A DNA stretch of 43,734 nucleotides from Pseudolabrys sp. (lineage in GTDB: Bacteria; Pseudomonadota; Alphaproteobacteria; Rhizobiales; Xanthobacteraceae), in assembly GCA_025929185.1 (NCBI GenBank), contig JAICMO010000006.1:1-43734 (forward strand), in the 5' to 3' direction. The first letter of the stretch is position 1, and each line of letters opens with the position of its first letter. The translations under genes and the position numbers were made by a program. The notes beneath the pieces were generated by a model. The model was not told where the DNA came from and did not search any database. It was given only the letters and a program-made list of their open reading frames with translations. Of the stretch, positions 29,616 to 43,734 are shown piece after piece.

Positions 29616-30398
29616 TTAGCCGCTCGTTGGATATTCAAGGCCCGAGCCGCGCACGGACCAGGCGGTGAAGCGGGTCTCCAGGGCGGCGAAGATTGCGTAC
29701 ATGCCGACGCCCATAACGCCGACGACGAGAAGCGCGGCGAACACCAGCGGAACGTTGAAATTCGAGCTGGCGATCAGCATCACGTTGCCGATGCCGTTAT
29801 TGCCGGCGACGATCTCCGCGATGACCGAGCCGACGAACGAGAGCGTAATAGCGATTTTCAGCGACGCAAAGAAATAGGGAAGGGAGCGCGGAATCCCGAT
29901 TTTAACGATCATGTCGAGACGGGTCGCGCCCAGCACGCGCAGAACGTCCACCAATTCGGGCTCCACCGTCGCAAAGCCGGTCGCGACGTTCACGACGACG
30001 GGAAAGAATGACAACAGGAACGCCGCAATAACGGCGGGCACGCTTCCGACGCCGAACCAGATCACAAGCACCGGCACAAGGGCGGCCTTTGGCACACTGT
30101 TGAATCCAATCAGCACCGGGTAAAGCGACACGTAAACGAGCCGGAACGAGCCGACGAGAATGCCGAGCAGCAGGCCGAATACGACGGCGATCGCGAAGCC
30201 GACAAGCGTGGTGCTCAGCGTCGCGAGCCCATGCTGGAGCAGGGCATAGCGATTGGCCCAAATCTGCTGGATCGCCTCGATTGGACTGGGCAAGACGAAG
30301 TTTTCCACGTGAAAAACCATGACGCCGAGCTGCCAAAGTATCAGCAGCAGCAAGGTGGTGACCCAGGGCGCCAGATTTTCGACGGTTGCCTTTTTCAC
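29616..30398 (-). CDS. ABC transporter permease (NitT/TauT type)
   Basis: This is an inner-membrane permease of 260 residues with about six membrane segments. The EAA loop, with ELVDVLRVLGATRLDMIVKI then GIPRSLPYF at about 168-196, contacts the ATPase. A GTG at 30398 is the likely start: it overlaps the ATPase stop (GTGA) and has GGGGAG about 6 nt upstream, while the longer open frame only reads into the ATPase gene. With the upstream ATPase and NMT1-like binding protein it forms a complete importer of the nitrate/sulfonate/thiamine-precursor/aromatic-acid class. It is the last gene of the minus-strand operon. Confidence 0.93.
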   Translation of the reverse strand: MKKATVENLAPWVTTLLLLILWQLGVMVFHVENFVLPSPIEAIQQIWANRYALLQHGLATLSTTLVGFAIAVVFGLLLGILVGSFRLVYVSLYPVLIGFNSVPKAALVPVLVIWFGVGSVPAVIAAFLLSFFPVVVNVATGFATVEPELVDVLRVLGATRLDMIVKIGIPRSLPYFFASLKIAITLSFVGSVIAEIVAGNNGIGNVMLIASSNFNVPLVFAALLVVGVMGVGMYAIFAALETRFTAWSVRGSGLEYPTSG

Positions 30399-31195
30399 GC
30401 GGCGCTCCCCGGCATGATGTGATGCCGGCATGCGTGCACCAACTCGACGAACTCGGCCTGATATGTCATGTCGAGCGTGCGGGGGCGCGGGAATGGCACA
30501 TCGCGCGAGGCGATGACGCGACCAGGACGCGGGCTCACCACATAAACGGTGTCGCAAAGATAAACGGCTTCGCGCAATTCATGCGTCACCAAGACGACGG
30601 TGCATTTACGCGTCAGCCAGAGATTTTGCAGCACCGCCCACAGCTCTTCGCGCGTAAAAGCGTCCAACGCGCCGAACGGCTCGTCCAGCAGCAGGACCGA
30701 GGGCTCGTGGATCAGAGCGCGGCATAGTTGGGCGCGTTGCTGCATGCCGCCCGAAAGTTGCCAGGGCATTTGGTCGCCGAAATCGGCAAGGCCGACGGTT
30801 GCGAGCAGTTCGTCCGCGCGCTGGCGCTTGAGCGCGGCCTCGCTGCGCGGCTGGCTGCGGTAAGGCTCGACGATTTCGAGGGGCAGCAGCACGTTGTCCC
30901 GCACGTTGCGCCACGGCAGCAGCGTCGAATTTTGGAATGCCATACCGACATTCTTGAGCGGCTTTTTGACGCTTTGGCCGCCGACGCGAACAACACCGCG
31001 TGTCGGCTTCACCAGACCGGAGATGAGCTTGAGCAGCGTCGACTTGCCGCAGCCGCTGGGGCCGACAACGGCAATGAATTCGTTCTGTCCGATCGACAGG
31101 GTTGCGTTCGCCAGCGCAAGCGTTCCGGCGCCATTCGCGGCGCCGGATTGCCGACCGTAGTGCAAATCAACATCGTCGATTTCGATGTAACTCAT
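30395..31195 (-). CDS. ABC transporter ATP-binding protein (NitT/TauT type)
   Basis: The 266-residue nucleotide-binding domain has Walker A GPSGCGKST at 45-53, Q-loop MAFQNSTLLPW, signature LSGGMQQR at 147-154, Walker B VLLLDEPFGALD at 167-178 and the H-loop VTHELREAVYL. A short insertion of uncertain role (GRQSGAANGAG) precedes the P-loop strand. The sequence class is that of nitrate/taurine/aromatic-acid importers. It lies between the binding-protein gene (34 nt gap) and the permease (4-nt overlap), so all three should be co-translated. Confidence 0.95.
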   Translation of the reverse strand: MSYIEIDDVDLHYGRQSGAANGAGTLALANATLSIGQNEFIAVVGPSGCGKSTLLKLISGLVKPTRGVVRVGGQSVKKPLKNVGMAFQNSTLLPWRNVRDNVLLPLEIVEPYRSQPRSEAALKRQRADELLATVGLADFGDQMPWQLSGGMQQRAQLCRALIHEPSVLLLDEPFGALDAFTREELWAVLQNLWLTRKCTVVLVTHELREAVYLCDTVYVVSPRPGRVIASRDVPFPRPRTLDMTYQAEFVELVHACRHHIMPGSAA

Positions 31196-31229
31196 CGCAA
31201 CGCGACCGGTCGTGGGTAAATGTGCCGCG

Positions 31230-32249
31230 TTACTTCACCATCCGGTCCTTTTCCGCCGGGAGAAAGCTGGGATCGAACACCTGGTCCGCCTTCGGCGTGT
31301 GGGGAAGCTTGTAGCTCGCCGCCAGGATGCCGATGCCTCGCTCGAGACGCGCCTTATCGACGCCGCCGAATCCGTGCTTCAGCACGTTGGGCGTAATGAT
31401 GCAGCACTCCATCGCAAGCTTGAGCCGGTCCCGCTCGATGTTGGCGTTGAGCAGCGGCTCGAATTTAAGCGTCATCTGCACCGCCTCCTCGGGATTTTTG
31501 ACCATGTCGCGCACTCCCTTGATGGTGGCGCGAATGAATCCCTTGACCGCATCAGGATGCTCTTTCAGGAAGGTCGGCGAAGCGGCGAGCCCGTTTCCGT
31601 AGAGGTCGAGGCCGTAGTCGCGATAGAGGAAGCCGACGACCTTGCTGGGATCGACGCCCTTGGCCTTGAGTTCCAGCTTGGTGTTGAAAATCTGCCCGAT
31701 GATCGCGTCGACCTGCCTTTTCGCCAGCAAGGTCTCGCGCAGCTTGGGATCGATGTACTGCACCTTCACCTTGCTGAGGTCGATGCCGGCGTGTTGCGCG
31801 AAGGTCGGAAACAGCTTGTAGGTGGCGTCATTGGCCGAGGCGCCGAGAACATGCCCTTCGAGCTGCTTCGGCGTGGTGATGTTGCTTTCCTTGAGCACGA
31901 CGATTGCGGCCGGTGCCTGCTCATAGCCCATCATGACTTCGGGAAATGCTTTATCCGGATTTTTGGCGTCGAAATCCGTCAGCACGCTGATATCCGGATA
32001 GCCCATGTCGTAGACGCCGGTCGCGAGTTGCTGAACCAGCGCAACGGAGCCCTTGCCGCGATCGATCGCCACATCGAGCCCTTCGGCTTTGTAGTAGCCT
32101 TTATAGAGCGCGATGAAGAACGGCGAATGGACGGACCCGGGGATCCAGTCGAGCGAGAAGCGGATTTTTGTCTCGGCATGAGCGTTGCCGGCGAGGGCCA
32201 CGCACAGAGCGAAAGCGACGAATGAAGCGAAGCGGCCGATGTATTTCAT
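31230..32249 (-). CDS. Periplasmic substrate-binding protein 1 (NMT1/THI5-like)
   Basis: The 339-residue protein has a Sec signal peptide (MKYIGRFASFVAFALCVALA, cleavage likely after NAHA) and an NMT1/THI5-like type II periplasmic binding fold (IRFSLDWIPGSVHSPFFIAL, then YKGYYKAEGLDV). AGGAGGGG precedes the ATG by about 5 nt. Members bind pyrimidines, riboflavin, aromatic acids or sulfonates. It closely resembles the binding protein at 35583: the same order of motifs from LYKGYYKAEGLDV to FLPAEKDRMVK. It sits between ubiD1 and the ATPase gene. Confidence 0.93.
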   Translation of the reverse strand: MKYIGRFASFVAFALCVALAGNAHAETKIRFSLDWIPGSVHSPFFIALYKGYYKAEGLDVAIDRGKGSVALVQQLATGVYDMGYPDISVLTDFDAKNPDKAFPEVMMGYEQAPAAIVVLKESNITTPKQLEGHVLGASANDATYKLFPTFAQHAGIDLSKVKVQYIDPKLRETLLAKRQVDAIIGQIFNTKLELKAKGVDPSKVVGFLYRDYGLDLYGNGLAASPTFLKEHPDAVKGFIRATIKGVRDMVKNPEEAVQMTLKFEPLLNANIERDRLKLAMECCIITPNVLKHGFGGVDKARLERGIGILAASYKLPHTPKADQVFDPSFLPAEKDRMVK

Positions 32250-32290
32250 AGTCCCCTCCTCATCGTTTGCGTTTATTTTCTCTCAGGCGC

Positions 32291-33697
32291 TCATAAGCTG
32301 ACGCCCGCAGACCTCAGGATGTCGCGCGCCCGATCGCGCTGTTTCTCGTTGATCATGAGACGCTCGGCGAAGTCGCGCCCCGCCGGGCGGGTGGCGTCGA
32401 TGCCCATCTTGGTCACGGTGAACGTCTCCGGGTCCGATGTCGGGTCAAGGATGGCCCCCTTCGCGCCGGGGATGAAGAAGATATCCTTCTCCGCCCGCAC
32501 GCGCGTCGCCAGGGCCCACATCACGTCGTTCATGTCGAAAATGTCGACGTCGTCATCGACCACGATCACGTATTTCGTGTAGAGTTCGGTGCCGAGCGTC
32601 GCCATGACCGCCATTTGCGGCTCGCCGTCGGCGGTTTTTTTCATCGAAATGAACGCCATGAAGGCGCCGCAGGTCGTATGCGGCACGTGCACCGCGCGCA
32701 CGTTCGGCAGGTTGCGCCTCAGCGTGTTGAGAATCTCGCCCTCGCGCGTGACGCACGAGACCAGAATGTGGTCCTTCGACATACCGGAGGTGACCGCCTG
32801 GTAGATGGCGTCGCCACGCATGCGGATGCGCTTGGCGACAAATACGTTTTGCGTGCTGCGGTAGGAGGCATAGCCGGTAAATTCGCCGAACGGACCCTCC
32901 GGCTCGTGCACGCCGGCAAGAATTTCGCCCTCGATGATAATCTCGGCGCCGGCGGGCACCTCGAGATCGGCGATGCCCGTCTTTGCCAGGCGATAGGGCT
33001 CGCCGAACAGACCGCCGATGATCTCGAATTTCCGCACGTTCGGCGGATAGGCGTAGACCATCGAACCCATGTAATGGAGCGGATGCGTGCCGATGGTGAT
33101 GACGGCCGGCAGCGACTCGCCGCGCTCCTCGGCGCGACGATGAAACTCGTACATGCGGCGGCGCGAATGCAACGACACGCCGAGGCGGTCCTTGCCCTTG
33201 AGCATTAAGCGATGAAAGCCGGTCGTGTCGACGCCGGTAACCGGATCGCGCGCCGAAATTTGGCCGGCCGTAATATAAGGCGCGCCGTCCACCGAAAATT
33301 GCAGAGGGATCGGCAACTTTGTCAGGTCGACCTCGTCGCCCTCGATAACGACGTCGTTCCATGCCGCCTGGGCGACGGTCTCGCACGGGATATATTTCTG
33401 GCAGCGCTCGCGAAACGCCGTCGGCAAATCGTGCGGGGCAACGCCGAGGCAAGTAGCCAGCAATTTCCGGTTGGCGGCGACATTGGTGACGATGGGAATT
33501 TTAAATCCATCCACGTTTTCGAGAACGACGACGGGATTTCTTCCGGCGCGCTCGAGTTCGAAGACGATTGAGGTCATATCGAAACGCTGATCGACCGGCT
33601 GCTTGATCCGAAGCAGTTCGTCCGGATATTTCGTTTCGACCATATGCAGGAAGCCGCGCAGGCTTTGCTTGTCGACGTTGTCCGCGGCCCCGCGCAT
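32291..33697 (-). CDS. UbiD-family prFMN-dependent decarboxylase (ubiD1)
   Basis: The 468-residue protein belongs to the UbiD/Fdc1 family that reversibly decarboxylates aromatic or unsaturated acids using prenylated FMN. R163 (GFHRLML), E267 and E272 (EPEGPFGEFTGYA) are 104 and 5 residues apart, exactly the spacing of catalytic R173, E277 and E282 in Fdc1. The metal-site glutamate of GEP is E233. The residue five before the arginine, an asparagine metal ligand in Fdc1, is T158 here. The ATG at 33697 has GAGGA about 6 nt upstream; an in-frame TTG at 33703 is too close. It heads a minus-strand operon with an ABC importer, divergent from ubiD2. prFMN must come from a UbiX encoded elsewhere. The substrate is unknown. 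Confidence 0.92.
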   Translation of the reverse strand: MRGAADNVDKQSLRGFLHMVETKYPDELLRIKQPVDQRFDMTSIVFELERAGRNPVVVLENVDGFKIPIVTNVAANRKLLATCLGVAPHDLPTAFRERCQKYIPCETVAQAAWNDVVIEGDEVDLTKLPIPLQFSVDGAPYITAGQISARDPVTGVDTTGFHRLMLKGKDRLGVSLHSRRRMYEFHRRAEERGESLPAVITIGTHPLHYMGSMVYAYPPNVRKFEIIGGLFGEPYRLAKTGIADLEVPAGAEIIIEGEILAGVHEPEGPFGEFTGYASYRSTQNVFVAKRIRMRGDAIYQAVTSGMSKDHILVSCVTREGEILNTLRRNLPNVRAVHVPHTTCGAFMAFISMKKTADGEPQMAVMATLGTELYTKYVIVVDDDVDIFDMNDVMWALATRVRAEKDIFFIPGAKGAILDPTSDPETFTVTKMGIDATRPAGRDFAERLMINEKQRDRARDILRSAGVSL

Positions 33698-33723
33698 CGC
33701 CAATCCTCAAAGAGACTATAGGC

Positions 33724-33739
33724 TAGAAAATAGTACCTT
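33724..33739. promoter_or_regulatory. Possible weak operator upstream of ubiD1
   Basis: CTA-G-AAAA-TAG followed by TACCTT lies 27 nt before the ubiD1 start. It shares ATAGTACCTT with the sequence upstream of the F420-reductase-like gene (43347-43356). Similarity to the ATCCTAA-N2-TTAGGAT palindrome is poor and requires a one-base shift. Confidence 0.2.
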
Positions 33740-33933
33740 TGAACTTTGCCGATTGGCAACCGCATTCCGCGGGCAGATGGCGCCGCGACACCCGCCGTGA
33801 ACGTCGCATGCGCACGGCACGCGCGGGTCAATTCTGACTGCGCGCCGGCCGAGGCGCGCGGTTGGCGCACGCATGCGTCGCGCCCTGCGTTTGCATGGCG
33901 AAGCCCTTGCCGAAGGGAAGAGGCTATTCCATG

Positions 33934-33949
33934 ATCCTAAACTTAGGAT
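33934..33949. promoter_or_regulatory. Operator palindrome ATCCTAA-AC-TTAGGAT at the ubiD2 start
   Basis: A perfect 7-bp inverted repeat with a 2-nt spacer ends 4 nt before the ubiD2 ATG. TTGCCG (33907-33912) and CATGAT (33930-33935) are 17 nt apart and could be weak -35 and -10 elements, so the palindrome would cover the promoter and the Shine-Dalgarno (AGGA at 33945-33948). A second near-copy lies before the Mo-hydroxylase operon. A GntR/UTRA regulator encoded at 36743 is the obvious candidate to bind it. Confidence 0.6.
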
Positions 33950-33952
33950 GTT

Positions 33953-35341
33953 ATGAAACAGGCGGATAGCTTGCGCGCGGTGTCTGCTCGGCCGACAAAC
34001 GAAGATTTTCGCGCCATGCTCGCGCGCATGGAGCGCGCCGGCCACTTGCGCCGCGTCAAAAAGACCATCCGACCCGAGCATATCACAGCGCTGTGCGGCA
34101 AGGCGCCGGCGGCCGTGATGTGCGAAGCGGTAGAAGGCTACGACATTCCCGTCGTCGGCGGGCTTTATTGGACGCGCGCGCGTATGGCTTCGGCGCTCGG
34201 CTGGCCGGAGGGCGAACTCGGAACGCGGTTTGCCGCGAGCGTCGCACGTCCGATCGCGCCGGAAGCCGTCGAGCGCGCGGCGTGCCAGGAGATTGTCGTC
34301 AGCGGAGACGACGTCGATCTCACCGCGCTGCCGATCCCGTTCATGCACGAGAAAGACGGTGGTCCGTACATTTCCGCTGGTGTGGCTTTCGCCAACGACG
34401 AGAAACTTGGGCCGAATGCCGGTTGCTACCGCATGATGTTCCGCACACGGCGTGAGCTCGGCATCGATCTGTTCACGGCGTCGGATTTGCGCCGGTATTA
34501 TCAGGCGAAGTTTGACCTCGGCCGCCCGCTGCCTATTGCGGTCGCGATCGGGGTGCACGTGTTCGAGCATATGGCGGCAGCCTACAAGGCGCCGGCCGGG
34601 CTGAATGAGATGCACATCGCCGGCGGCCTGCGCGGCGAGCCGCTGCAAATGGTCCGCTGCAAGACCGTCGACGTGATGGTGCCGGCGAATGCCGAAATCG
34701 TGCTGGAAGGGGAATTGCTGCCGAATGGATGGACCGCGGATGAAGGCCCCTTCGGCGAGTTCGCCGGCATGCAGGGCGATCTCAAGCGCAACCCGCTATT
34801 TCGGGTGAGCGCCATCACGCATCGGAAAAATCCCATCTTCTATGCCCTGCAAATGCCGTGGGAAAACGATTGGCTCAACGGTCCGGCGACGGAAGCCGCC
34901 TGTGCGCGCGTTCTTGGGCTCGCCGGCATCCAGGTTGCGGCGGTGCGCGCGACCGAAGGCGGCTGCTGCGGCTGGTCGGTGGTCGCCGCGATCAAGAAGC
35001 GCGCCGGCGAGGGGAAAAATGCCATCGCGGCGCTTTTATCCTTGCCGGTCGTCAAGCAAGTGATCGTCACGGACGACGACATCGATATTTACAACTCCGA
35101 TGAGGTGGAATGGGCGGTTACTTTCCGCTGCCAAGCGGACAAGGACATCGTCATTCTATCCGGCATGAAAGGAAAGCACGTCGATCCGAGCGTGCGGCCA
35201 TGGGATCTCAAGCCCGGTGAATTGCCGACCACATCGAAATTCGGCATCGACGCCACCATTCCCGAAGGCGTTCCCGCATTCCGCTATGAACGAATTGTGC
35301 CCGCATTTCTAAACGAAATCCGGGTGGAGGACTATCTGTGA
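33953..35341 (+). CDS. UbiD-family prFMN-dependent decarboxylase (ubiD2)
   Basis: This is a second UbiD/Fdc1-like protein, 462 residues. R160 (GPNAGCYRMMF), E264 and E269 (DEGPFGEFAGM) repeat the Fdc1 catalytic spacing of 104 and 5. Unlike ubiD1, N155 stands five before the arginine, matching the Fdc1 metal-ligand position; E229 in RGEP is the other metal-site candidate. Similarity to ubiD1 is only moderate, so the two are probably different in substrate or are two subunits of one enzyme, as the two UbiD-like subunits of phenylphosphate carboxylase are. The start lies just after an operator palindrome. The stop overlaps the start of a 65-residue protein (GTGA). Confidence 0.92.
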   Translation: MKQADSLRAVSARPTNEDFRAMLARMERAGHLRRVKKTIRPEHITALCGKAPAAVMCEAVEGYDIPVVGGLYWTRARMASALGWPEGELGTRFAASVARPIAPEAVERAACQEIVVSGDDVDLTALPIPFMHEKDGGPYISAGVAFANDEKLGPNAGCYRMMFRTRRELGIDLFTASDLRRYYQAKFDLGRPLPIAVAIGVHVFEHMAAAYKAPAGLNEMHIAGGLRGEPLQMVRCKTVDVMVPANAEIVLEGELLPNGWTADEGPFGEFAGMQGDLKRNPLFRVSAITHRKNPIFYALQMPWENDWLNGPATEAACARVLGLAGIQVAAVRATEGGCCGWSVVAAIKKRAGEGKNAIAALLSLPVVKQVIVTDDDIDIYNSDEVEWAVTFRCQADKDIVILSGMKGKHVDPSVRPWDLKPGELPTTSKFGIDATIPEGVPAFRYERIVPAFLNEIRVEDYL

Positions 35342-35535
35342 CGATGGAAACGGCAGATAGCGCGCTTGCGGCCGAGATTGAAGCGCTGCTGCGGAGGCCG
35401 GTGTTCTTCCGTGATGTGCTCGCCGCGCTTCGCGCTCATCCTTATCGCGTGATCTTGCGCGCGTGGAGCGATATACGCACGCGCCACGCGCTCGCCCGCG
35501 ACGAATTTGGACGCTACTGGCTGGAGAAGACGTAA
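35338..35535 (+). CDS. 65-residue protein coupled to ubiD2, function unknown
   Basis: I do not recognise this family. The GTG at 35338 overlaps the ubiD2 stop codon, and GGAGG lies 7 nt upstream, so it is translated with ubiD2; an ATG at 35344 is an alternative. The product is mostly helical and basic, with ALAAEIEALLRRPVFFRDVL, ALRAHPYRVILRAW and a C-terminal aromatic tail (FGRYWLEKT). It has no cysteines and no signal peptide. Position and size suggest a small subunit or chaperone of the UbiD enzyme, comparable in gene order, not in sequence, to the small proteins of vanillate/4-hydroxybenzoate decarboxylase or phenylphosphate carboxylase clusters. Confidence 0.75.
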   Translation: MTMETADSALAAEIEALLRRPVFFRDVLAALRAHPYRVILRAWSDIRTRHALARDEFGRYWLEKT

Positions 35536-35582
35536 GACGCTCGATGATGAGCAACGAAGAAACAAAAGCTTGGGAGGATTCC

Positions 35583-36605
35583 ATGTCGATAAGACACGCC
35601 GCAGTGCGTCTCGCCGCTTTCTTCGTTTTCACTCTGTCACTGCTGAGCGGTGCGCAAGCGCAGACGAAAATCCGCTTTACGCTCGACTGGTTGCCCGGCT
35701 CCTATCACGCGCCGTTCTTTATCGCTCTCTACAAAGGCTATTACAAAGCCGAGGGCCTCGATGTGACCATCGACGCCGGCAAGGGATCGGGCCGGGTCGT
35801 GCGGGAGTTGGCAACAGGCGTCTATGATATCGGCTATCCCGACATTAACGTCTTGACGGAATTCAATGCGAAGAACCCGAAGCTCGCGTTTCCCGAAGTG
35901 ATGATGGGCTACGAGCAAAATCCGTCGGGCCTGTTCTTCCTCAAGTCCAGCGGCATCAAGACCATCAAGGATATCGAAGGCAAGACGCTCGGCCCGGTAG
36001 CCAACGATTCGACCTATAAGACGCTGCCCGTATTCGCGAAGCTGAACAATCTCGATTTAAGTAAAGTGAAGATCGAGTACCTCGACCCGGCGCTGCGCGA
36101 AGCCATGTTGGTCAAGGGCCATGTCGACGCGATCACCGGCCAGTATTTCCGCTCCGTCATCGATCTGCACGGTAGGGGCGTGAAATACGAAGACATCGGC
36201 TCTTTCCTCTACAAGGATCATGGGCTCGATCTCTACGGCAACGGCGTGGCCGTCTCGCCGAGCTTCCTCAAGGAAAATCCGGATGCCGTGAAGCGGTTTG
36301 TGCGAGCGACCATCAAGGGCGTCAAAGACATGATCCACGACCCGAAGATGGCGGTCGACATGGTGGCAAAGGCGCAGCCGCTTCTCAAAAAGGACATCGA
36401 GCTGGAACGGCTGAAATTGGCTTTAAGCTGCTGCATTGCCACGCCGAATGTGCTGAAGAACGGATATGGCAGCGTCGATCGGGCGCGACTTGAGCGTGCC
36501 ATTGCGCTCATCAGTGATGGCTATGGGCTCCCGCGGAAGCCGCCCGTAGACGAGGTGTTCAATGGTTCGTTCCTGCCGCCGGAGCAGGAGCGAATGGTGA
36601 AATAG
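35583..36605 (+). CDS. Periplasmic substrate-binding protein 2 (NMT1/THI5-like)
   Basis: The 340-residue protein starts at an ATG with GGGAGGA about 5 nt upstream and a Sec signal (hydrophobic AAFFVFTLSLLSG, cleavage likely after AQA near residue 25). The mature part (IRFTLDWLPGSYHAPFFIAL, YKGYYKAEGLDV, FPEVMMGYEQNP, DLYGNGVAVSP) parallels binding protein 1 at 31230 along its whole length. No second permease or ATPase is present in the window, so it may feed the transporter encoded at 29616-31195. A strong hairpin follows its stop, separating it from the GntR gene. Confidence 0.93.
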   Translation: MSIRHAAVRLAAFFVFTLSLLSGAQAQTKIRFTLDWLPGSYHAPFFIALYKGYYKAEGLDVTIDAGKGSGRVVRELATGVYDIGYPDINVLTEFNAKNPKLAFPEVMMGYEQNPSGLFFLKSSGIKTIKDIEGKTLGPVANDSTYKTLPVFAKLNNLDLSKVKIEYLDPALREAMLVKGHVDAITGQYFRSVIDLHGRGVKYEDIGSFLYKDHGLDLYGNGVAVSPSFLKENPDAVKRFVRATIKGVKDMIHDPKMAVDMVAKAQPLLKKDIELERLKLALSCCIATPNVLKNGYGSVDRARLERAIALISDGYGLPRKPPVDEVFNGSFLPPEQERMVK

Positions 36606-36632
36606 GCCGCGGCCGATCACTCAGAAGGTCAT

Positions 36633-36660
36633 CCGGAATGCGCGAGGCCGCGTATTCCGG
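36633..36660 (+). terminator. Hairpin between binding protein 2 and the GntR gene
   Basis: The arms CCGGAATGCGCG (36633-36644) and CGCGTATTCCGG (36649-36660) pair over 12 bp with one G-T wobble around the loop AGGC. It begins 28 nt after the binding-protein stop. The following CAAATTT is only weakly T-rich, so termination may be partial. Confidence 0.5.
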
Positions 36661-36742
36661 CAAATTTACGGTTGCAATTGACGGCCGTAGGCACGATTAG
36701 ATAGGCGGAGTGCGAGGACCAGCGGGACGACAGATTGGCACG

Positions 36743-37522
36743 ATGTTTGAGCTTTCAAAGGTTTATGACCGCAGCCGGGTGCCCCTGTACATTCAGGTCG
36801 CCTCGGTTATGCGCCGCCGTATCGAGACGAAACAGTGGCATCCCGGACAAAAGATACCGACACTGGTCGAGCTCGAGCGCGAATTTCAGGTTGCCCGCGT
36901 TACCGTTCGCCAAGCCGTCGATATCCTCCGGGAAGAGGGATTGCTGCGCTCACAGCAAGGGCGCGGCACGTTCGCCGCGGAGAAGCCCGTCGATCGGCAC
37001 TGGTTCAAGCTCGCGACGACGTGGGATGTGCTGATCGAGTCGATCAAGAATAACGTCCTCAAACGCATCAAAGTGGACAACCCGCCCCAGTTTCCAACCT
37101 TGCGCGAGGGGGAAGGCGAACTGGCCGACAGCTACGTTTTCCTCCGCAGCGTTCAGTATAAGGACGCCGAGCCCTACGGCATCGTCAATTTGCATCTTGC
37201 GAAAGACATCTATAAGCGCGCTCCCGATGCCTTCCGGCAGCATCCGGCCTTGACCGTTATCGCGGAACGCAAAGACGTCGACATTCAGCACGCGCACCAG
37301 ACGGTGGTCATCGGCAGCGCGGACCCGGCCACGTCCGATCTGTTGCAAATCGCGCTCGGCGCGCCGACTGCCGAATGCCGCTGCGTGCTGATCGACCGCA
37401 ATAACGTCGCGATCTACATCGCCGATATCATTTACCGCAGCGACGCCATTCAACTGCACATCGATCTGCTTGCGCATTTGCGCAGTTCGTCAGGCGGCCG
37501 GACCAAAGCGGCGCGCAGATGA
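36743..37522 (+). CDS. GntR family regulator (HutC/UTRA type)
   Basis: The protein has 259 residues from the ATG at 36743; a GTG at 36710 would add 11. The N-terminal GntR winged helix is recognisable in VPLYIQVASVMRRRIETKQW, HPGQKIPTLVELEREFQVAR, TVRQAVDILREEGLLRSQQG and RGTF (about 10-80). The C-terminal UTRA ligand-binding domain (about 95-250) has SYVFLRSVQYKDAEPYGIVN and the closing ADIIYRSDAIQLHIDL. UTRA domains bind small effectors such as histidine intermediates, fatty acids or sugars. Lying between the transport/UbiD genes and the Mo-hydroxylase operon, it is the likely regulator of both. Whether it acts as repressor or activator is not visible. Confidence 0.92.
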   Translation: MFELSKVYDRSRVPLYIQVASVMRRRIETKQWHPGQKIPTLVELEREFQVARVTVRQAVDILREEGLLRSQQGRGTFAAEKPVDRHWFKLATTWDVLIESIKNNVLKRIKVDNPPQFPTLREGEGELADSYVFLRSVQYKDAEPYGIVNLHLAKDIYKRAPDAFRQHPALTVIAERKDVDIQHAHQTVVIGSADPATSDLLQIALGAPTAECRCVLIDRNNVAIYIADIIYRSDAIQLHIDLLAHLRSSSGGRTKAARR

Positions 37523-37535
37523 CACGGCAGCGGGT

Positions 37536-37541
37536 TTGACA
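37536..37541 (+). promoter_or_regulatory. Candidate -35 element TTGACA of the Mo-hydroxylase operon
   Basis: A consensus -35 hexamer lies 129 nt before the large-subunit ATG. No good -10 stands at 16-18 nt; the best, CAAGAT at 37561, is 19 nt away and overlaps the operator-like palindrome. This fits a promoter controlled at its -10 region. Confidence 0.35.
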
Positions 37542-37556
37542 GTTGCAACGCCGATC

Positions 37557-37572
37557 ATCCCAAGATTAGGAT
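37557..37572. promoter_or_regulatory. Second operator copy ATCCCAA-GA-TTAGGAT before the Mo-hydroxylase operon
   Basis: It differs from the palindrome at 33934 by one base in the left arm (C for T) and in the 2-nt spacer, leaving six of seven arm pairs. A further direct half-site-like ATAGGAT (37574-37580) follows at once. It lies 15 nt after a TTGACA and 97 nt before the gene start. Confidence 0.55.
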
Positions 37573-37669
37573 CATAGGATTAAATGGTTTTGCGGTGCCG
37601 CTTATGGCGGCATCGCGCGTCATTTGACTGAGCCGGACGTAATCCGGCGGCCTGCGGGAGTACGTTGCG

Positions 37670-40006
37670 ATGAAAGAGCAAGGCGTCGGGGCGCGCCTCC
37701 TCCGCAAGGAAGACGACCGCTTCATGCGCGGTCGCGGGCAGTATGTCGCCGATCTGCGTTTTGCCGGCATGAAGGACGTTGCTTTCGTGCGCAGTCCGGT
37801 TGCCCACGCACGCATCCGCAGCGTGCAGCCGCCGGAGACGCACAGGCATGCGGTGTTCACCGCTGCCGATCTTTCCGGCGTAAAGGCGATCCGCGCCGTC
37901 ACCACCATCAAAGGATTCAAGCCGTCCGAGCAGCCTCCGCTCGCCACCGACAAGGTACGTTACGTCGGCGAATTGCTGGCGATGTGCGTCGCGCCGACGC
38001 GAGCGGAGGCGGAGGATATCGCCGCAGCCGTCGTGCTCGATCTCGACGAGTTGCCGGCGGTGCACGACATGCTGGCCGCGCGCGACCAGCAATCCGTGTT
38101 GCTGCACGAGCAGTGGGGCGACAATATTTTTCTGGAATCGCTTGTCGAGATCGACATCGAGAAGGCGCTGGATGCACCGATCAAGGTGACGCGCGAAGTC
38201 CGCACGTCGCGGCAATGCATGGCGCCGATCGAAGGGCGCGCGGTGGTCGCAATGTGGGACACGCGCCTCGAGCAGCTTACCGTCTATTCGGCTTGTCAGA
38301 TGCCTCACATCGTGCGGACCGGACTTGCCGAATGCCTTGGCCTCGACGAGGGGCAGGTGCGTGTTGTTTCGCCCGATGTCGGTGGGGGGTTCGGATACAA
38401 GGGAATTCTGCTCGCCGAAGAGGTCTGTCTCGGCTGGCTCGCCATGCAATGTGGCCACCCGGTGCGCTGGATCGAAGATCGCCGCGAGCACCTGACGGCG
38501 AATGCCAATTGCCGTGAGCATTATTACCGCATCACGGGTTATGCCGATCGCGACGGCACGCTGCGCGGCATCGATTGCGAAGCGACCGTCGATTCCGGCG
38601 CTTATTCGGCTTATCCGTTCTCCGCCTGTCTCGAGGCGGCGCAGGTCGCAAGCATCCTGCCGGGACCTTACGATTTTCCGGCCTATCGCTGCCGCACGTT
38701 TTCGGTCGCGACCGATAAATGCCCGATCTTGCCATACCGCGGCGTGGCGCGGACGGGCGTATGCTTTGCGCTCGAACTGGTGCTCGATGCGATCGCGCGT
38801 GAAGCCGGCATAGAGCCATACGCGGTACGCGAGAAAATTTTGGTCAAGCGGGCCCAGATGCCGTTCACCAACATCACAAGGAAATACTTCGACAGTGGCG
38901 ACTATCCGGAATCGCTGCGGCGCGCGGTGGCGGCGATCGATCTCGAAGCCGTGCGCGCGCGGCAGCGCCGCGGAGAGCCGGACGGCCGCCTGATCGGGGT
39001 CGGGCTTGCGACGTACTGCGAGCAGGCGGCGCACGGCACGTCCGTTTATCACGGCTGGGGCATTCCGATGGTGCCCGGTTTCGAACAGGCGACAGCGCGG
39101 CTTACGCCGGACGGCGGCCTCGAATTGCGCGTCGGCGTGCACTCGCACGGTCAGGGGCTCGAAACGAGCTTGGCACAGGTTGCGCACGAGGTGCTGGGGG
39201 TCGACGTCGAGAAGATCAAGGTCGTGCACGGCGATACGGCGCTCACGCCGTATTCGACCGGCACCTGGGGCTCGCGCTGCGCGGTGATGGCCGGAGGCGC
39301 GGTGTCGGTTGCGTGCAAAGAGCTGGCGAAGCGCGCCGCCAAGGTCGGAGCACAGTTGCTGCAGACCGACGCCGATAAAGTATCGGTGCGTGGCGGCGAG
39401 GTGATCGGTCCGCGCGGCTCGATCACCCTCAAGGAGATCGCGGCGACCTGGTACTTAAAGCCGCAAAATCTGCCACCAGACGTTGACATGGGCGGCATGG
39501 AGGCAACCATTGGCTATCGGCCCAAGCCCGATACCGGCACGTTCAGCTACGCAACGCATGCGGCAGTCGTCGCCGTCGATGCCGAAATCGGCGGCGTCGA
39601 GATTCTCGACTACGTCGTGGTTGAGGACGGCGGCAAGCTGATCAATCCGATGATCGTTGACGGACAGATTCTCGGCGGGCTGGCGCAAGGCATCGGCACC
39701 GCGCTTTATGAGGAAATGCCGTTCGACTCCGCCGGCCAGCCGCTGGCCTCGACATTCGCGGATTATCTGTTGCCCGGTCCGACCGAGGTGCCGTCCGTGA
39801 AAATTGATCACATGGAGACGCTCGCACCGCACACCGAGTTCGGCGTCAAGGGACTTGGCGAAGGCGGTGCCATTCCGCCGCCGGCGACGATCGCCAACGC
39901 CATCAACGACGCGCTACGTCCGCTCGGGGCTGAATTGACGATTTCGCCAATCACGCCACGCCGCATTCTGGAAGCGATCGAGCACGCCGGCCGGAGCGGG
40001 ACGTGA
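37670..40006 (+). CDS. Molybdenum hydroxylase large subunit (CoxL-like, molybdopterin)
   Basis: The 778-residue subunit binds molybdopterin cytosine dinucleotide and holds the active site. It begins VGARLLRKEDDRFMRGRGQY, has VVSPDVGGGFGYKGI (about 238-252) and the catalytic glutamate E731 in GVKGLGEGGAIPPPATI. The loop equivalent to AYRCSFR of CO dehydrogenase or YRGxGRPE of other relatives is YRGVARTG at about 356-363, so it is not CO dehydrogenase and is unusual among relatives. It is the first gene of an operon with the FAD and Fe-S subunits (4-nt overlaps). It lacks a signal peptide, so it is cytoplasmic. Hydroxylation of an aromatic or heteroaromatic ring is the best guess. Confidence 0.93.
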   Translation: MKEQGVGARLLRKEDDRFMRGRGQYVADLRFAGMKDVAFVRSPVAHARIRSVQPPETHRHAVFTAADLSGVKAIRAVTTIKGFKPSEQPPLATDKVRYVGELLAMCVAPTRAEAEDIAAAVVLDLDELPAVHDMLAARDQQSVLLHEQWGDNIFLESLVEIDIEKALDAPIKVTREVRTSRQCMAPIEGRAVVAMWDTRLEQLTVYSACQMPHIVRTGLAECLGLDEGQVRVVSPDVGGGFGYKGILLAEEVCLGWLAMQCGHPVRWIEDRREHLTANANCREHYYRITGYADRDGTLRGIDCEATVDSGAYSAYPFSACLEAAQVASILPGPYDFPAYRCRTFSVATDKCPILPYRGVARTGVCFALELVLDAIAREAGIEPYAVREKILVKRAQMPFTNITRKYFDSGDYPESLRRAVAAIDLEAVRARQRRGEPDGRLIGVGLATYCEQAAHGTSVYHGWGIPMVPGFEQATARLTPDGGLELRVGVHSHGQGLETSLAQVAHEVLGVDVEKIKVVHGDTALTPYSTGTWGSRCAVMAGGAVSVACKELAKRAAKVGAQLLQTDADKVSVRGGEVIGPRGSITLKEIAATWYLKPQNLPPDVDMGGMEATIGYRPKPDTGTFSYATHAAVVAVDAEIGGVEILDYVVVEDGGKLINPMIVDGQILGGLAQGIGTALYEEMPFDSAGQPLASTFADYLLPGPTEVPSVKIDHMETLAPHTEFGVKGLGEGGAIPPPATIANAINDALRPLGAELTISPITPRRILEAIEHAGRSGT

Positions 40007-40836
40007 AACCGGTCCGTTTTGCGTACGAGCGTCCAACAGACCTTGCCGCCGCCTTCGCACTCGGCCGGCGCGAAGACATCGCGGTGAAATTTCTCGCCGG
40101 CGGTCAATCGCTCGGGCCGATGCTCAATTTGCGGCTGATCCAGCCCGAGCTTGTCGTCGACATTACGGCCATTGCCGAACTCAAGCACATCGAGGAGAAA
40201 CCCGAATCGATTGTGCTCGGAAGCTGCATCACGCATGCCGATATCGAAGACGGGCGCGTGCCGGACGTAACCAGCGCCGCGTTGCGCCGCGTTGCGTGCG
40301 GCATTGCCTATCGCGCCGTCCGCAATCGTGGCACCATCGGCGGCAGCGTCGCGCATGCCGATCCGGCGGCAGACTGGCTTTCCGCGCTGGCGGCGCTCGG
40401 CGCCTCGGCAATCGTAAAAGGTGAAAGTGGGCAGCGTGGTATTGCAATTGAAGACCTGATCGTCGGTGTCTTTGAGACGACGTTGAAACCGGGTGAGATC
40501 GTTACCGGCGTCGAGATCCCGCGGCAGTCGCGCGCCGCGCGCTGGGGATACTACAAGGCTTCGCGCAAGACCGGTGAATTTGCGCACGCCATCGGCGCGT
40601 TCATGCATGATCCGGAACGGTCGGTCTGTCGCGCGGTCATCGGCGCGACCGGCTCGAAGCCGATCGTGCTGACGGATATGCAAGAACTTTTTGTTGGCCG
40701 CGTGCCGAAACCTGAGGCGATGAGCGTGCAATTCGTGCGCCAGATGATGGGCGCGCGCGGCATGGGCGACGACATCGAGCAGAAGATTCATCTTGCGGTA
40801 TTGCGCCGCGCGATTGCACAGGCGCATGCTTCATGA
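40003..40836 (+). CDS. Molybdenum hydroxylase FAD subunit (CoxM-like)
   Basis: The 277-residue flavoprotein subunit carries electrons from the Fe-S centres to the acceptor. It starts at a GTG overlapping the large-subunit stop. FAD-binding landmarks are AGGQSLGPMLNLRLIQPE (about 32-49) and RNRGTIGGSVAHADPAADW (about 107-125). The C-terminal CO-dehydrogenase-flavoprotein domain (about 170-275) includes WGYYKASRKTGEFAHAIGAF. Its stop overlaps the next start (ATGA). Confidence 0.94.
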   Translation: MKPVRFAYERPTDLAAAFALGRREDIAVKFLAGGQSLGPMLNLRLIQPELVVDITAIAELKHIEEKPESIVLGSCITHADIEDGRVPDVTSAALRRVACGIAYRAVRNRGTIGGSVAHADPAADWLSALAALGASAIVKGESGQRGIAIEDLIVGVFETTLKPGEIVTGVEIPRQSRAARWGYYKASRKTGEFAHAIGAFMHDPERSVCRAVIGATGSKPIVLTDMQELFVGRVPKPEAMSVQFVRQMMGARGMGDDIEQKIHLAVLRRAIAQAHAS

Positions 40837-42017
40837 CTTCCGTTGCACTGACAATCAACGGCGAAGATGCGATTGCCGATGTCGAGCCGCGGATGCACCT
40901 CGCGGACTTCATACGCGAGACGCAAAATCTCACAGGAACGCACCTTGGCTGCGAGCATGGTGTTTGCGGCGCGTGCACGGTGTTAGTTGACGGCGTGCCG
41001 GTGCGCTCGTGCATTACATACGCCGTCTCCTGCACGAATGCCGTCGTGACCACCATCGAAGGGCTCGACAATGACGAGATTGCGAAGGAATTGAGGTCCG
41101 CATTTTCGCGCGAGCATGCACTTCAATGCGGCTACTGCACGCCGGGCATGCTGATTTCCGCGCGCGATCTCGTGCTGCGCGCGGCTGACGCGGACGAGCG
41201 GGCGATCCGCGTCGGCATGAGCGGTAACCTCTGCCGCTGCACCGGCTATCTGGGAATCATTCGCGCGGTGCAAAGCGTGATTGCCGAACGGCGAAGGCGG
41301 GGCGTCGCACCTTTGCCGGGCGCCGGGCGCAAGACGCTCGGTCCGGCCGGTGCAAGCAGTAAGGCGAGTGCGTCTCCGGTTGCGTCCGCTCAGGGAGGGC
41401 GGCCCATCGCGGATACGGCGTCCATTTCTGCTCGAACGGAAAGCCTTGCCGACTGGAAGCCGCAATCCACTTTCGAGCAGAGCTTTGCCGTGCACCAACC
41501 GCTTGAGGCGGTGTGGAATTTCTTCGGTCAGCTAGCGGAAGTAGCCGCCTGCTTACCCGGGGCGTCCCTGACCGGCGAAAGCCAGGGTAACACCGTGATC
41601 GGGAAGATGCGCGTCAAGGTGGGACCGATCGCCGCTGAGTTCCACGGAACGGCCGAAATCACGCGCAACGATGCCACGCATTCCGGCTCGATCAGCGGGA
41701 GCGGCCGTGACCAGCGCAGCACTTCCGCAACGCGCGGGATCGTCAATTATCGGCTTATGGCGGCCGACGATGGAGCGACCAAAGTCACGCTGACGGTCGG
41801 CTATCGCCTGACCGGGCCGCTGGCGCAATTTAGCCGTTCGGACTTGATGCAAGACATCGCCGGCCGCTTGGTGACGACGTTTGCGCAAAACGTCGAAGCG
41901 CGTCTGCGCGGCGATCCGGCGCCGGCGCAGGCGAGCGAACTGCGCGCGGGCACGCTCTTCTTTGCGGCGCTTGCGCGAACAATCAAGATGCGCATCAGCC
42001 GCCTGTTCGGCCGATAG
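40833..42017 (+). CDS. Fused 2Fe-2S subunit (CoxS-like) and CoxG-like SRPBCC domain
   Basis: The 394-residue protein is more than twice the length of a normal CoxS (about 160). Residues 1-152 are a complete 2Fe-2S subunit: plant-ferredoxin-type cluster C40, C45, C48, C60 and second cluster C99, C102, C134, C136 (QCGYCTPGML, GNLCRCTGYLG). A Ser/Ala/Gly-rich linker (about 153-212) leads to an SRPBCC/CoxG domain (about 213-360; FAVHQPLEAVWNFF, ACLPGASLTGE, MRVKVGPIAAEFHG). The tail (GTLFFAALARTIKMRISRLF) is hydrophobic then basic, which could anchor at the membrane as in CoxG. CoxG recruits CO dehydrogenase to the membrane in Oligotropha; here that role would be built into the enzyme. Confidence 0.92.
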   Translation: MTSVALTINGEDAIADVEPRMHLADFIRETQNLTGTHLGCEHGVCGACTVLVDGVPVRSCITYAVSCTNAVVTTIEGLDNDEIAKELRSAFSREHALQCGYCTPGMLISARDLVLRAADADERAIRVGMSGNLCRCTGYLGIIRAVQSVIAERRRRGVAPLPGAGRKTLGPAGASSKASASPVASAQGGRPIADTASISARTESLADWKPQSTFEQSFAVHQPLEAVWNFFGQLAEVAACLPGASLTGESQGNTVIGKMRVKVGPIAAEFHGTAEITRNDATHSGSISGSGRDQRSTSATRGIVNYRLMAADDGATKVTLTVGYRLTGPLAQFSRSDLMQDIAGRLVTTFAQNVEARLRGDPAPAQASELRAGTLFFAALARTIKMRISRLFGR

Positions 42018-42047
42018 AGACACTGCAAGCTCGACGGAAGGAACATC

Positions 42048-43319: not shown

Positions 43320-43337
43320 ATCAGGCAAGATATTGTG

Positions 43338-43353
43338 TTACTAAACATAGTAC
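43338..43353. promoter_or_regulatory. Third, weaker operator-like palindrome
   Basis: TTACTAAACATAGTAC contains the perfect inverted repeat TACTA-AACA-TAGTA (43339-43352) and matches the 33934 palindrome at 11 of 16 positions, including CTAAAC and TAG. It lies 37 nt before the F420-reductase-like start. Confidence 0.35.
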
Positions 43354-43390
43354 CTTAGGCTTGGCGCCCGCCGTCGCGGAGTTGAAACAT

Positions 43391-43734
43391 ATGGAAAGCG
43401 GCAAGCCGATTATCGCTGTGATCGGCGGGACAGGCGATCTCGGGTCCGGCCTTGCCCGGTTGTGGGCGGCCGCAGGTTATCGCGTGTTACTCGGCTCGCG
43501 CGATAAGCAGAAAGCCGCAGCGGCTGCACGAGAAATATCGGCGCAAATTGGAGCCGATGTTCGCGGCGACGATAACCTAAGCGCCGCCAAAGTCGCGGAA
43601 GTGGTCGTGCTTTGCGTGCCTTATTCCAATCACGATGCAATTGTCGACGACATCAAGCCGGCGATGACCGGCAAGGTGCTGGTCGACGCGGTGGTGCCAT
43701 TGGCGCCGCCGAAGGTCGCGGTCGTGCAACTGCC
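43391..43734 (+). CDS. F420-dependent NADP reductase-like protein (FNO/NpdG family), 3' end missing
   Basis: The frame starts at an ATG at 43391 and runs off the window after 114 codons (a full protein is about 200-230). The N-terminus IAVIGGTGDLGSGLARLWAA is the Rossmann NADP-binding signature of NADPH:F420 reductases, followed by VLLGSRDKQKA, VVVLCVPYSNHDAIV and VLVDAVVPLAPPK, all in the expected order. Some F420-independent dehydrogenases share this fold, so use of F420 is not proven. It is 71 nt after the M20 gene, with its own operator-like palindrome. Confidence 0.85.
   Translation, partial: MESGKPIIAVIGGTGDLGSGLARLWAAAGYRVLLGSRDKQKAAAAAREISAQIGADVRGDDNLSAAKVAEVVVLCVPYSNHDAIVDDIKPAMTGKVLVDAVVPLAPPKVAVVQL

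What the first reader, a model, noticed from the sequence alone, without database searches (positions are those of the whole stretch)
29616..43734. Uncharacterised import and breakdown cluster: two UbiD enzymes, NMT1-type importer, Mo-hydroxylase, M20 hydrolase, F420-type reductase
A single contiguous block combines an importer, two UbiD-family decarboxylases, a small coupled protein, a second binding protein, a GntR/UTRA regulator, a molybdenum hydroxylase, an M20 deacylase and an FNO-like reductase. From known families, Mo-hydroxylases insert OH into (hetero)aromatic rings and UbiD enzymes decarboxylate aromatic acids. I infer a pathway for an imported heteroaromatic acid or its acyl/amide derivative. 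I know of no described pathway with this exact set. HMF/furoate degradation uses a UbiD and a Mo-hydroxylase but also needs a CoA ligase, which is absent here.
Basis: partly seen in the sequence, partly recalled or inferred. Interest (0 to 1): 0.7.

Follow-up and report, generated by a model that had tools for sequence, protein, structure and literature searches.

The report
Twin-UbiD, F420-linked catabolic gene island
A soil-type bacterium carries an inserted block of genes that probably imports an unidentified ring-shaped acid and breaks it down using two decarboxylases together with the rare cofactor F420, whose purpose in this group of bacteria is not known.

Summary
Two corrections: the Mo-hydroxylase has three subunits (the third is a 2Fe-2S protein fused to CoxG), and the block does not end at FNO. 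The window is a whole contig whose last 141 bases equal the start of contig C42, where FNO runs on into CofE, CofD and CofC/CofG. Two further contigs, placed by a 236-bp overlap and by synteny, carry the rest of CofGH, a CoA-transferase, an F420-type luciferase-like enzyme and glycine cleavage.

Two modules are conserved separately: ubiD1-ubiD2-small protein with variable importers, and GntR/Mo-hydroxylase/M20/FNO/cof. In the family they co-occur (22 of 25 UbiD1 genomes have CofGH, against 78 of 296). Three other genomes from two genera join UbiD1 to GntR, Mo-hydroxylase, M20 and FNO; G326 has both modules on separate contigs. As one block the window's set was seen nowhere else.

The 65-residue protein is a predicted winged helix that overlaps UbiD2 by 4 bases and is fused to UbiD elsewhere: probably a new UbiD partner subunit.

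Best reading: import, decarboxylation, hydroxylation, F420H2-dependent reduction and hydrolysis of a heteroaromatic acid. The substrate is unknown and every reaction is inferred.

The parts
29616..30398 (-). ABC importer permease (nitrate/taurine type)
   Evidence: PF00528 E 7e-25; start codon chosen by the 4-base overlap with the ATPase stop (read)
30395..31195 (-). ABC importer ATPase
   Evidence: PF00005 E 1e-33; best NCBIfam models taurine/nitrate ATPase, all 25 shown below cut-off
31230..32249 (-). NMT1-type periplasmic binding protein 1
   Evidence: PF09084 E 1e-37
32291..33697 (-). UbiD1, prFMN-type decarboxylase; closest solved structure by sequence HmfF (6h6v)
   Evidence: PF01977/20695/20696; TIGR00148 over cut-off; PDB 252 bits; ERE residues kept, Mn-ligand Asn replaced by Thr
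33936..33947 (.). inverted repeat CCTAAACTTAGG just upstream of ubiD2; possible operator
   Evidence: weak
33953..35341 (+). UbiD2, prFMN-type decarboxylase, partner of orf65
   Evidence: PF01977 E 8e-60; TIGR00148 over cut-off; PDB HmfF 268 bits; ERE and Asn kept
35338..35535 (+). orf65: 65-aa predicted winged-helix protein, 4-base overlap with ubiD2; homologous to a C-terminal UbiD domain elsewhere
   Evidence: no significant Pfam, NCBIfam or PDB sequence match
35544..36605 (+). NMT1-type periplasmic binding protein 2 (start codon uncertain)
   Evidence: PF09084 E 5e-37
36710..37522 (+). GntR/UTRA (HutC-like) regulator
   Evidence: PF00392, PF07702
37670..40006 (+). Mo-hydroxylase large subunit (moL)
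   Evidence: PF02738, PF20256, PF01315; closest solved structure by sequence quinoline 2-oxidoreductase 1t3q
40003..40836 (+). Mo-hydroxylase FAD subunit (moM)
   Evidence: PF00941 E 5e-43
40833..42017 (+). Mo-hydroxylase 2Fe-2S subunit fused to CoxG domain (moS)
   Evidence: PF01799, PF00111, PF06240
42048..43319 (+). M20 metallo-hydrolase (ArgE/DapE-like)
   Evidence: PF01546 E 2e-34; closest solved structure by sequence 3pfo
43339..43352 (.). TACTA-N4-TAGTA inverted repeat upstream of FNO; also upstream of FNO in L187 and gntR in L153
   Evidence: weak
43391..43734 (+). FNO: NADPH-dependent F420 reductase, N-terminal part; continues on contig C42 (L213), followed there by CofE, CofD, CofC/CofG
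   Evidence: PF03807 66 bits; 141-nt exact contig overlap; cof genes over NCBIfam cut-offs

Best explanation
The block is the left part of an accessory catabolic island for an imported (hetero)aromatic acid, probably N-heterocyclic. Proposed mechanism: (1) NMT1-type ABC importers take up the acid. (2) UbiD1 and UbiD2, with prFMN from the genome's UbiX, remove carboxylate(s). UbiD2 works with orf65, a winged-helix subunit that stabilises or activates it as VdcD does for VdcC. (3) The Mo-hydroxylase hydroxylates the ring to a lactam and passes electrons to the membrane through its CoxG domain. (4) FNO makes F420H2 from NADPH, and the luciferase-like F420 enzyme of the island reduces the electron-poor ring. 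(5) The M20 hydrolase (or PxpA in relatives) opens or splits the amide. (6) The CoA-transferase and glycine cleavage system carry the fragments into central metabolism. GntR/UTRA senses the compound. Shown: gene content, contig linkage, conservation, co-occurrence, small-protein homology to fused UbiD tails, catalytic residues. Inferred: every reaction, their order and the substrate class.
For: Families. FNO-CofE-CofD-CofC/CofG continuous with the window through an exact 141-nt overlap. CoA-transferase, LLM and gcvTHP on contigs C224 and C41. The order GntR-Mo-M20-FNO-CofE-CofD-CofGH-PALP-CoAT-LLM in same-genus G486 (L149, L209). In 296 family genomes UbiD1 and CofGH together in 22 of 25 UbiD1 genomes, against 78 of 296, p=2e-11; UbiD1 and MoL 24 of 25, against 131 of 296, p=1e-8. 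MoL within 20.5 kb of CofGH in 35 of 60 genomes with both, and of UbiD1 in 7 of 24. UbiD1 with GntR, Mo, M20 and FNO in L165, L187, L202. Both modules in G326 on separate contigs. UbiD1-UbiD2-orf65 kept together through rearrangement. orf65 homologous to fused UbiD tails. CofGH in 24 of 29 genomes with UbiD2-clade loci, against 54 of 337 in the class.
Against: No substrate, expression or enzyme evidence exists. UbiD2-clade loci occur without a CofGH match in five of 29 genomes (L037, L039, L040, L048, L069, the last the isolate Skermanella stibiiresistens); four of these five carry UbiD1 as well, so CofGH is in only 6 of the 10 with UbiD1 but 18 of the 19 without. GntR-Mo-cof islands occur with no UbiD in the fetched stretch (L149, L153, L154). 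M20 orthologs at E<=1e-70 were found under only 2 of 30 handles, both the same genome G326. Three of 25 family genomes with UbiD1 lack CofGH. Contigs C42 and C224 do not overlap; their link rests on the split CofGH gene and synteny. Serine/glycine enzymes, PALP and CoA-transferase do not point to one known ring. The genomes compared are related, so p-values overstate independence.
Confidence: 0.5

Rival explanations
1. Two independent catabolic modules that happen to sit side by side: a twin-UbiD import operon for one aromatic acid, and a GntR/Mo-hydroxylase/M20/F420 operon for another compound.
For: Each module is found alone: UbiD1 with orthologous importer in L192, L193, L197, L203; GntR-MoLMS-cof with no UbiD in the fetched stretch in L149, L153, L154. 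Of the ten genomes with UbiD1 and UbiD2 loci together that were searched, four show no CofGH. In G326 the modules are on different contigs. As one block the window set was not seen elsewhere.
Against: UbiD1 with GntR, Mo-hydroxylase, M20 and FNO in three further genomes; UbiD1 within 20.5 kb of MoL in 7 of 24 genomes; strong co-occurrence with CofGH and MoL in the family.
Confidence: 0.27
2. The two UbiD proteins and orf65 form one multi-subunit enzyme (twin UbiD subunits plus a small subunit, as in phenylphosphate carboxylase), with UbiD1 in a structural or carboxylating role rather than as a second decarboxylase.
For: UbiD1 and UbiD2 stay linked through rearrangements; UbiD1 has Thr at the Mn-ligand Asn position in 51 of 51 rows; small UbiD subunits are known (VdcD, PpcGamma; PMC8379154, passages read).
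Against: The ERE catalytic residues are intact in both. UbiD1 occurs without UbiD2 and UbiD2-orf65 without UbiD1. Phenylphosphate carboxylase models score far below cut-off.
Confidence: 0.13
3. A furoate/HMF-type (Hmf) furan pathway.
For: HmfF is the closest solved structure of both UbiDs by sequence and of a fused homologue's model; a Mo-hydroxylase is present.
Against: No CoA ligase among the 13 genes of the block; F420, LLM, M20 and glycine cleavage genes are not part of the furan route as I know it (recalled).
Confidence: 0.04

Closest known systems
VdcCD / hydroxyarylic acid decarboxylases (UbiD plus small D subunit)
   Same: A UbiD enzyme with a tiny partner protein; VdcD is an integral allosteric activator (PMC8379154, passages read).
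   Different: VdcD is a four-cysteine zinc ribbon; orf65 has no cysteine and is a predicted winged helix, fused to UbiD in relatives. VdcC model scores 244 and 288 bits against a cut-off of 650.
LpdD prFMNH2-binding chaperone
   Same: Small UbiD accessory protein (PMC10865409, passages including the abstract read).
   Different: [quoted passage not shown] orf65 overlaps or is fused to the UbiD gene.
HmfF furan-2,5-dicarboxylate decarboxylase
   Same: Closest solved structure of both UbiDs by sequence.
   Different: Gene context differs; no CoA ligase in the block; F420 genes present.
Bacterial F420 systems (Fno, LLM reductases; for example picrate degradation, recalled)
   Same: FNO and CofC/D/E/G continuous with the window; CofH half and F420-type LLM on contigs placed by overlap and synteny.
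   Different: No F420 enzyme had been studied experimentally in bacteria outside the actinobacteria, and the role in Alphaproteobacteria was open, as of the 2021 review (PMC8498797, section 23 read).
Phenylphosphate carboxylase
   Same: Two UbiD-like subunits plus a small subunit.
   Different: NCBIfam alpha/beta models far below cut-off; no phosphatase or kinase family among the block's genes.

Membership tests
UbiD prFMN decarboxylase family | UbiD_N, Rift and UbiD_C domains; TIGR00148 over cut-off | tested here: met
   Both proteins
UbiD prFMN decarboxylase family | catalytic Glu-Arg-Glu triad | tested here: met
   Window proteins, 51 UbiD1 rows and 38 UbiD2 rows (rows include repeated genomes)
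UbiD prFMN decarboxylase family | Asn ligand of the Mn/prFMN phosphate site (Fdc1 N168; role and number recalled) | tested here: inconclusive
   Asn in UbiD2 (38 of 38 rows), Thr in UbiD1 (51 of 51 rows)
UbiD prFMN decarboxylase family | UbiX prFMN synthase in the genome | tested here: met
   Contig C197, L005:8514-9137, TIGR00421 over cut-off
UbiD prFMN decarboxylase family | prFMN binding and decarboxylation | not testable with these tools
   bench
VdcBCD hydroxyarylic decarboxylase | zinc-ribbon D subunit with four cysteines | tested here: not met
   orf65 has no cysteine; predicted winged helix
VdcBCD hydroxyarylic decarboxylase | VdcC model cut-off 650 | tested here: not met
   288 and 244 bits
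Hmf furoate pathway | CoA ligase HmfD in the cluster | tested here: not met
   none among the 13 genes; a CoA-transferase on C224 instead
Hmf furoate pathway | HmfF-type UbiD | tested here: inconclusive
   closest solved structure by sequence; substrate residues not tested
F420 biosynthesis and reduction | CofC, CofD, CofE, CofG, CofH | tested here: met
   TIGR03552, 01819, 01916, 03550 over cut-off on C42; CofH half on C224 by 68% identity to the L153 CofGH protein, itself over cut-off
F420 biosynthesis and reduction | NADPH:F420 reductase npdG | tested here: inconclusive
   window gene is cut and only its Pfam domain was scored (66 bits); relative L153 over the npdG cut-off
F420 biosynthesis and reduction | F420-dependent LLM oxidoreductase | tested here: met
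   L209 protein over TIGR03619 cut-off; own orthologue 89-90% identical, split over C224/C41; F420 use itself not testable here
Molybdenum hydroxylase (xanthine oxidase family) | large MoCo, FAD and 2Fe-2S subunits | tested here: met
Aerobic CO dehydrogenase form I | active-site motif AYRCSFR (recalled) | tested here: not met
   sequence reads PYRGVAR; CoxL models below cut-off
Phenylphosphate carboxylase | alpha and beta subunit models over cut-off | tested here: not met

The most novel reading that the evidence does not exclude
The island is a catabolic route in which prenyl-flavin decarboxylation (UbiD) and deazaflavin F420H2-dependent ring reduction act on the same imported N-heteroaromatic acid. 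It would be a dedicated physiological use of F420 in Alphaproteobacteria, with the genes for making the cofactor carried in the island itself. Its UbiD2 belongs to a clade with a winged-helix subunit (orf65), free or fused, of which I found no description.
Probability: 0.33. Interest if true: 0.8.

Novelty: new variant of a known kind. Interest (0 to 1): 0.62.

Why it matters
What F420 does in Alphaproteobacteria is an open question: the 2021 review says experimental work is required (PMC8498797, section 23 read). This island gives a concrete, genetically testable candidate, with synthesis, reduction and probable use of the cofactor beside an importer and catabolic enzymes, in a family where about a quarter of the sampled genomes carry CofGH (78 of 296). 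orf65 adds a predicted fold that differs from the small UbiD partners described in the papers I read in passages (VdcD, LpdD; PpcGamma is named without a fold there). It has a natural fusion form that can be tested by co-expression, in a field where activating recombinant UbiD enzymes is a practical problem.

Tried and rejected
Phenylphosphate carboxylase, VdcBCD and Hmf membership were tested and not met, or not fully met. Form I CO dehydrogenase was rejected on the motif and models. A plasmid search with UbiD2 found only relatives below 60% identity (the 20 listed rows 35-37%); I did not inspect their neighbourhoods. Literature searches for F420 with Alphaproteobacteria, UbiD, Azorhizobium, Bradyrhizobium, Rhizobiales or glycine cleavage, and for UbiD with winged helix, listed no paper that by title and start of abstract treats this combination. 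They cover only the held open-licence library. A shared operator was sought: TACTA-N4-TAGTA appeared in 3 loci, but so did three GC-rich patterns, against a maximum of 2 in 30 plain shuffles; too weak to claim. The substrate could not be fixed. Nicotinate, imidazole, pyrazine and purine-type routes were considered from memory only; none explains CoA-transferase, LLM and glycine cleavage together. The H191-equivalent position in UbiD1 and UbiD2 aligned unreliably and is not used. The fused-UbiD model (mean pLDDT 80) has low confidence in residues 254-263, 388-401 and 404-424, so no docking pose is claimed. Foldseek hits of orf65 are weak (none at E<=0.001) and support only a general winged-helix fold.
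Full report
OBSERVATION. The window is contig C7 of a 3.63-Mb, 281-contig genome. On the minus strand: permease (29616-30398), ATPase (30395-31195), NMT1-type binding protein (31230-32249), UbiD1 (32291-33697). On the plus strand: UbiD2 (33953-35341), a 65-codon ORF (35338-35535), a second NMT1-type binding protein (about 35544-36605), GntR/UTRA (36710-37522), Mo-hydroxylase large (37670-40006), FAD (40003-40836) and 2Fe-2S subunits (40833-42017, fused to CoxG), M20 hydrolase (42048-43319), and the start of an FNO-type reductase (43391-end).

THE BLOCK CONTINUES. The last 141 bases of the window are identical to the first 141 of own contig C42. On C42 the FNO frame goes on, followed by CofE, CofD and one ORF that reads CofC then CofG, each over its NCBIfam cut-off. 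C224 holds the second half of CofGH, a PALP enzyme, CoA-transferase alpha and beta, and the start of an LLM protein. C41 begins with the rest of that LLM (89-90% identical to the L209 protein), then a LIV-type ABC transporter and GcvT, GcvH and GcvP. C224 and C41 overlap by 236 bp at 99.15%. C42 and C224 do not overlap; their link rests on the split CofGH gene and on synteny with same-genus G486. In G486 the order GntR-MoL-MoM-MoS-M20-FNO-CofE-CofD-CofGH-PALP-CoAT-LLM-serine dehydratase-LIV lies on one contig, and the LLM is over the cut-off of the F420-dependent family TIGR03619.

TWO MODULES. Module 1 is UbiD1, UbiD2 and orf65 with an importer. Among 36 loci of the UbiD2 clade, UbiD1 lies beside or within a few kilobases of UbiD2 in ten: L037, L038, L039, L040, L041, L047, L052, L069, L070 and L074, in different orders and orientations, with NMT1-ABC, TRAP-TAXI or TctC importers and amidohydrolase, amidase or alpha/beta-hydrolase neighbours in several. 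Within the family, UbiD1 has the window's own type of importer (binding protein, ATPase, permease 53-69% identical) in L192, L193, L197 and L203, or TRAP-TAXI plus amidohydrolase in L163, L195, L199 and L204. Module 2 is GntR-MoLMS with M20 or PxpA, FNO and cof genes (L149, L153, L154, L187; L151 and L166 in part).

DO THE MODULES BELONG TOGETHER? For: in one sample of 296 family genomes, UbiD1 (E<=1e-150) is in 25, MoL (E<=1e-200, paralogues included) in 131 and CofGH (E<=1e-100) in 78. UbiD1 genomes have CofGH in 22 of 25 (Fisher p 1.8e-11) and MoL in 24 of 25 (p 1.4e-8). At genus level all 14 UbiD1 genera also have CofGH, against 22 of 47 genera overall (p 9e-7). MoL lies within 20.5 kb of CofGH in 35 of 60 genomes with both, and of UbiD1 in 7 of 24. 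UbiD1 lies within 25 kb of CofGH in 3 of 22 (its MoL positions cover 122 of the 131 genomes, because one search does not print all matches). UbiD1 together with GntR, Mo-hydroxylase, M20 and FNO occurs in L165, L187 and L202, three genomes of two genera (MoL in L202 reads in two pieces). In L187 UbiD1 is divergent from a GntR-M20-FNO-CofE-CofD-CofGH run. L047 has UbiD1, UbiD2, orf65, GntR and MoLMS. G326 has UbiD1-UbiD2-orf65 on contig C47 and GntR-Mo-M20-FNO-cof on contig C70 (L163, L160, L214). Across phyla, 24 of 29 genomes with UbiD2-clade loci (29 of the 36 loci were given) carry CofGH (E<=1e-60), against 54 of 337 in the class sample. Without the seven Rokubacteria it is 18 of 22 (p 1e-10); with ten of the positives counted as one, 9 of 13 (p 4e-5). 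A few of the 29 are also in the class sample. Relatedness makes these p-values optimistic.

Against: the five genomes without CofGH are L037, L039, L040, L048 and Skermanella stibiiresistens (L069). Four of them carry UbiD1 too, so CofGH is in 6 of the 10 genomes with UbiD1 and UbiD2 loci together but in 18 of the 19 with UbiD2 loci alone. Outside the family the link of UbiD1 to F420 is therefore not shown. No F420 gene was found in the held flanks of the 36 UbiD2 loci. M20 orthologs at E<=1e-70 were found under only 2 of 30 handles, which are one genome, G326. As one block the exact window set was not seen elsewhere.

AN ACCESSORY INSERTION. None of the 20 same-genus genomes listed has a UbiD2 (E<=1e-80) or UbiD1 (E<=1e-150) match. 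In 4 of 4 same-genus genomes inspected, fabH-ihfA-merR is kept, but in about 10 kb beyond merR none of the block's genes is found, apart from two ABC ATPases of 34% and 47% identity several kilobases on in L236.

THE SMALL PROTEIN. In 27 loci examined of 36 orthologous ones (nine left out: match broken, cut, fused or with unknown letters, or, for L049 and L057, not put in the list), a 58-75 residue ORF overlaps the end of UbiD2 by 4 bases, 27 of 27. Nine columns are invariant, counting the start Met. An HMM made only from free copies finds the tails of all 17 fused UbiD proteins tested (E 4e-8 to 4e-3), while the best non-UbiD hit printed among 12,077 background ORFs has E 0.067. The third UbiD of the own genome gave no hit. 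AlphaFold2 gives a winged helix at mean pLDDT 89; Foldseek matches to winged helices are weak. No significant Pfam, NCBIfam or PDB sequence match was found. Small UbiD partners in print are unrelated by sequence to one another: VdcD, a zinc ribbon that activates VdcC; LpdD, a prFMNH2 chaperone; and PpcGamma (PMC8379154 and PMC10865409, passages read). I infer that orf65 is a further kind of partner subunit, probably acting as VdcD does.

THE UBID ENZYMES. The closest solved structure of both by sequence is HmfF; the model of a fused homologue also matches HmfF best. Glu-Arg-Glu residues are intact in both. UbiD1 carries Thr instead of the Mn-ligand Asn in all 51 rows, while UbiD2 keeps Asn in all 38 (rows include repeated genomes). 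UbiX and a third UbiD lie on C197, so prFMN can be supplied.

MECHANISM AND SUBSTRATE. The Mo-hydroxylase is nearest to quinoline 2-oxidoreductase among solved structures by sequence. Together with UbiD, FNO, the F420-type LLM, amide hydrolases (M20 or PxpA), CoA-transferase and glycine cleavage, this suggests import, decarboxylation, hydroxylation, F420H2-dependent reduction, hydrolytic opening and entry of fragments into central metabolism. All reactions are inferred from family knowledge and the substrate is not identified. [quoted passage not shown]

VERDICT. Real, conserved in parts, and richer than reported: an accessory island in which a twin-UbiD import module meets an F420-linked Mo-hydroxylase module, with a new winged-helix UbiD partner. 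New variant of known kinds; interest 0.62.

Noticed in passing
L213:2226-3749 (own contig C42): CofC and CofG are read in one open frame, suggesting a CofC-CofGH fusion protein.
   Followed up: partly
L005:8514-10793 (own contig C197): UbiX next to a third UbiD of 548 aa that is distant from UbiD1/UbiD2 and has no orf65-like tail detected.
   Followed up: partly
window 43339-43352; L187 upstream of fno; L153 upstream of gntR: Shared inverted repeat TACTA-N4-TAGTA, a possible operator; a similar TACTAT..TCTAG block precedes ubiD1 in the window, L187 and L038.
   Followed up: partly
L047:11567-13171: A further UbiD with a fused orf65-like tail sits between UbiD2-orf65 and the Mo-hydroxylase genes.
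   Followed up: no
L042, L049, L057, L066: In two Rokubacteria, an alphaproteobacterium and a Burkholderiales MAG, an NMT1-type ABC importer lies directly upstream of UbiD2 (orf65 detected in L042 and L066).
   Followed up: no
L043, L051, L053, L054, L056, L058, L059, L060, L067, L078: Ten MAG loci share UbiD2 with TauE-like and MsrA-like genes nearby, and nine of the ten (not L058) an aldehyde dehydrogenase; a different context for the same UbiD2 clade.
   Followed up: partly
G333, G356, G499, G552: Each of these family genomes shows three CofGH matches, suggesting several F420 loci per genome.
   Followed up: no
L155-L159, L161, L162, L164: In other genera of the family a close Mo-hydroxylase (66-75%) sits with a LIV-type importer and mostly an amidohydrolase and an alpha/beta hydrolase, with no cof genes detected in the stretch.
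   Followed up: partly
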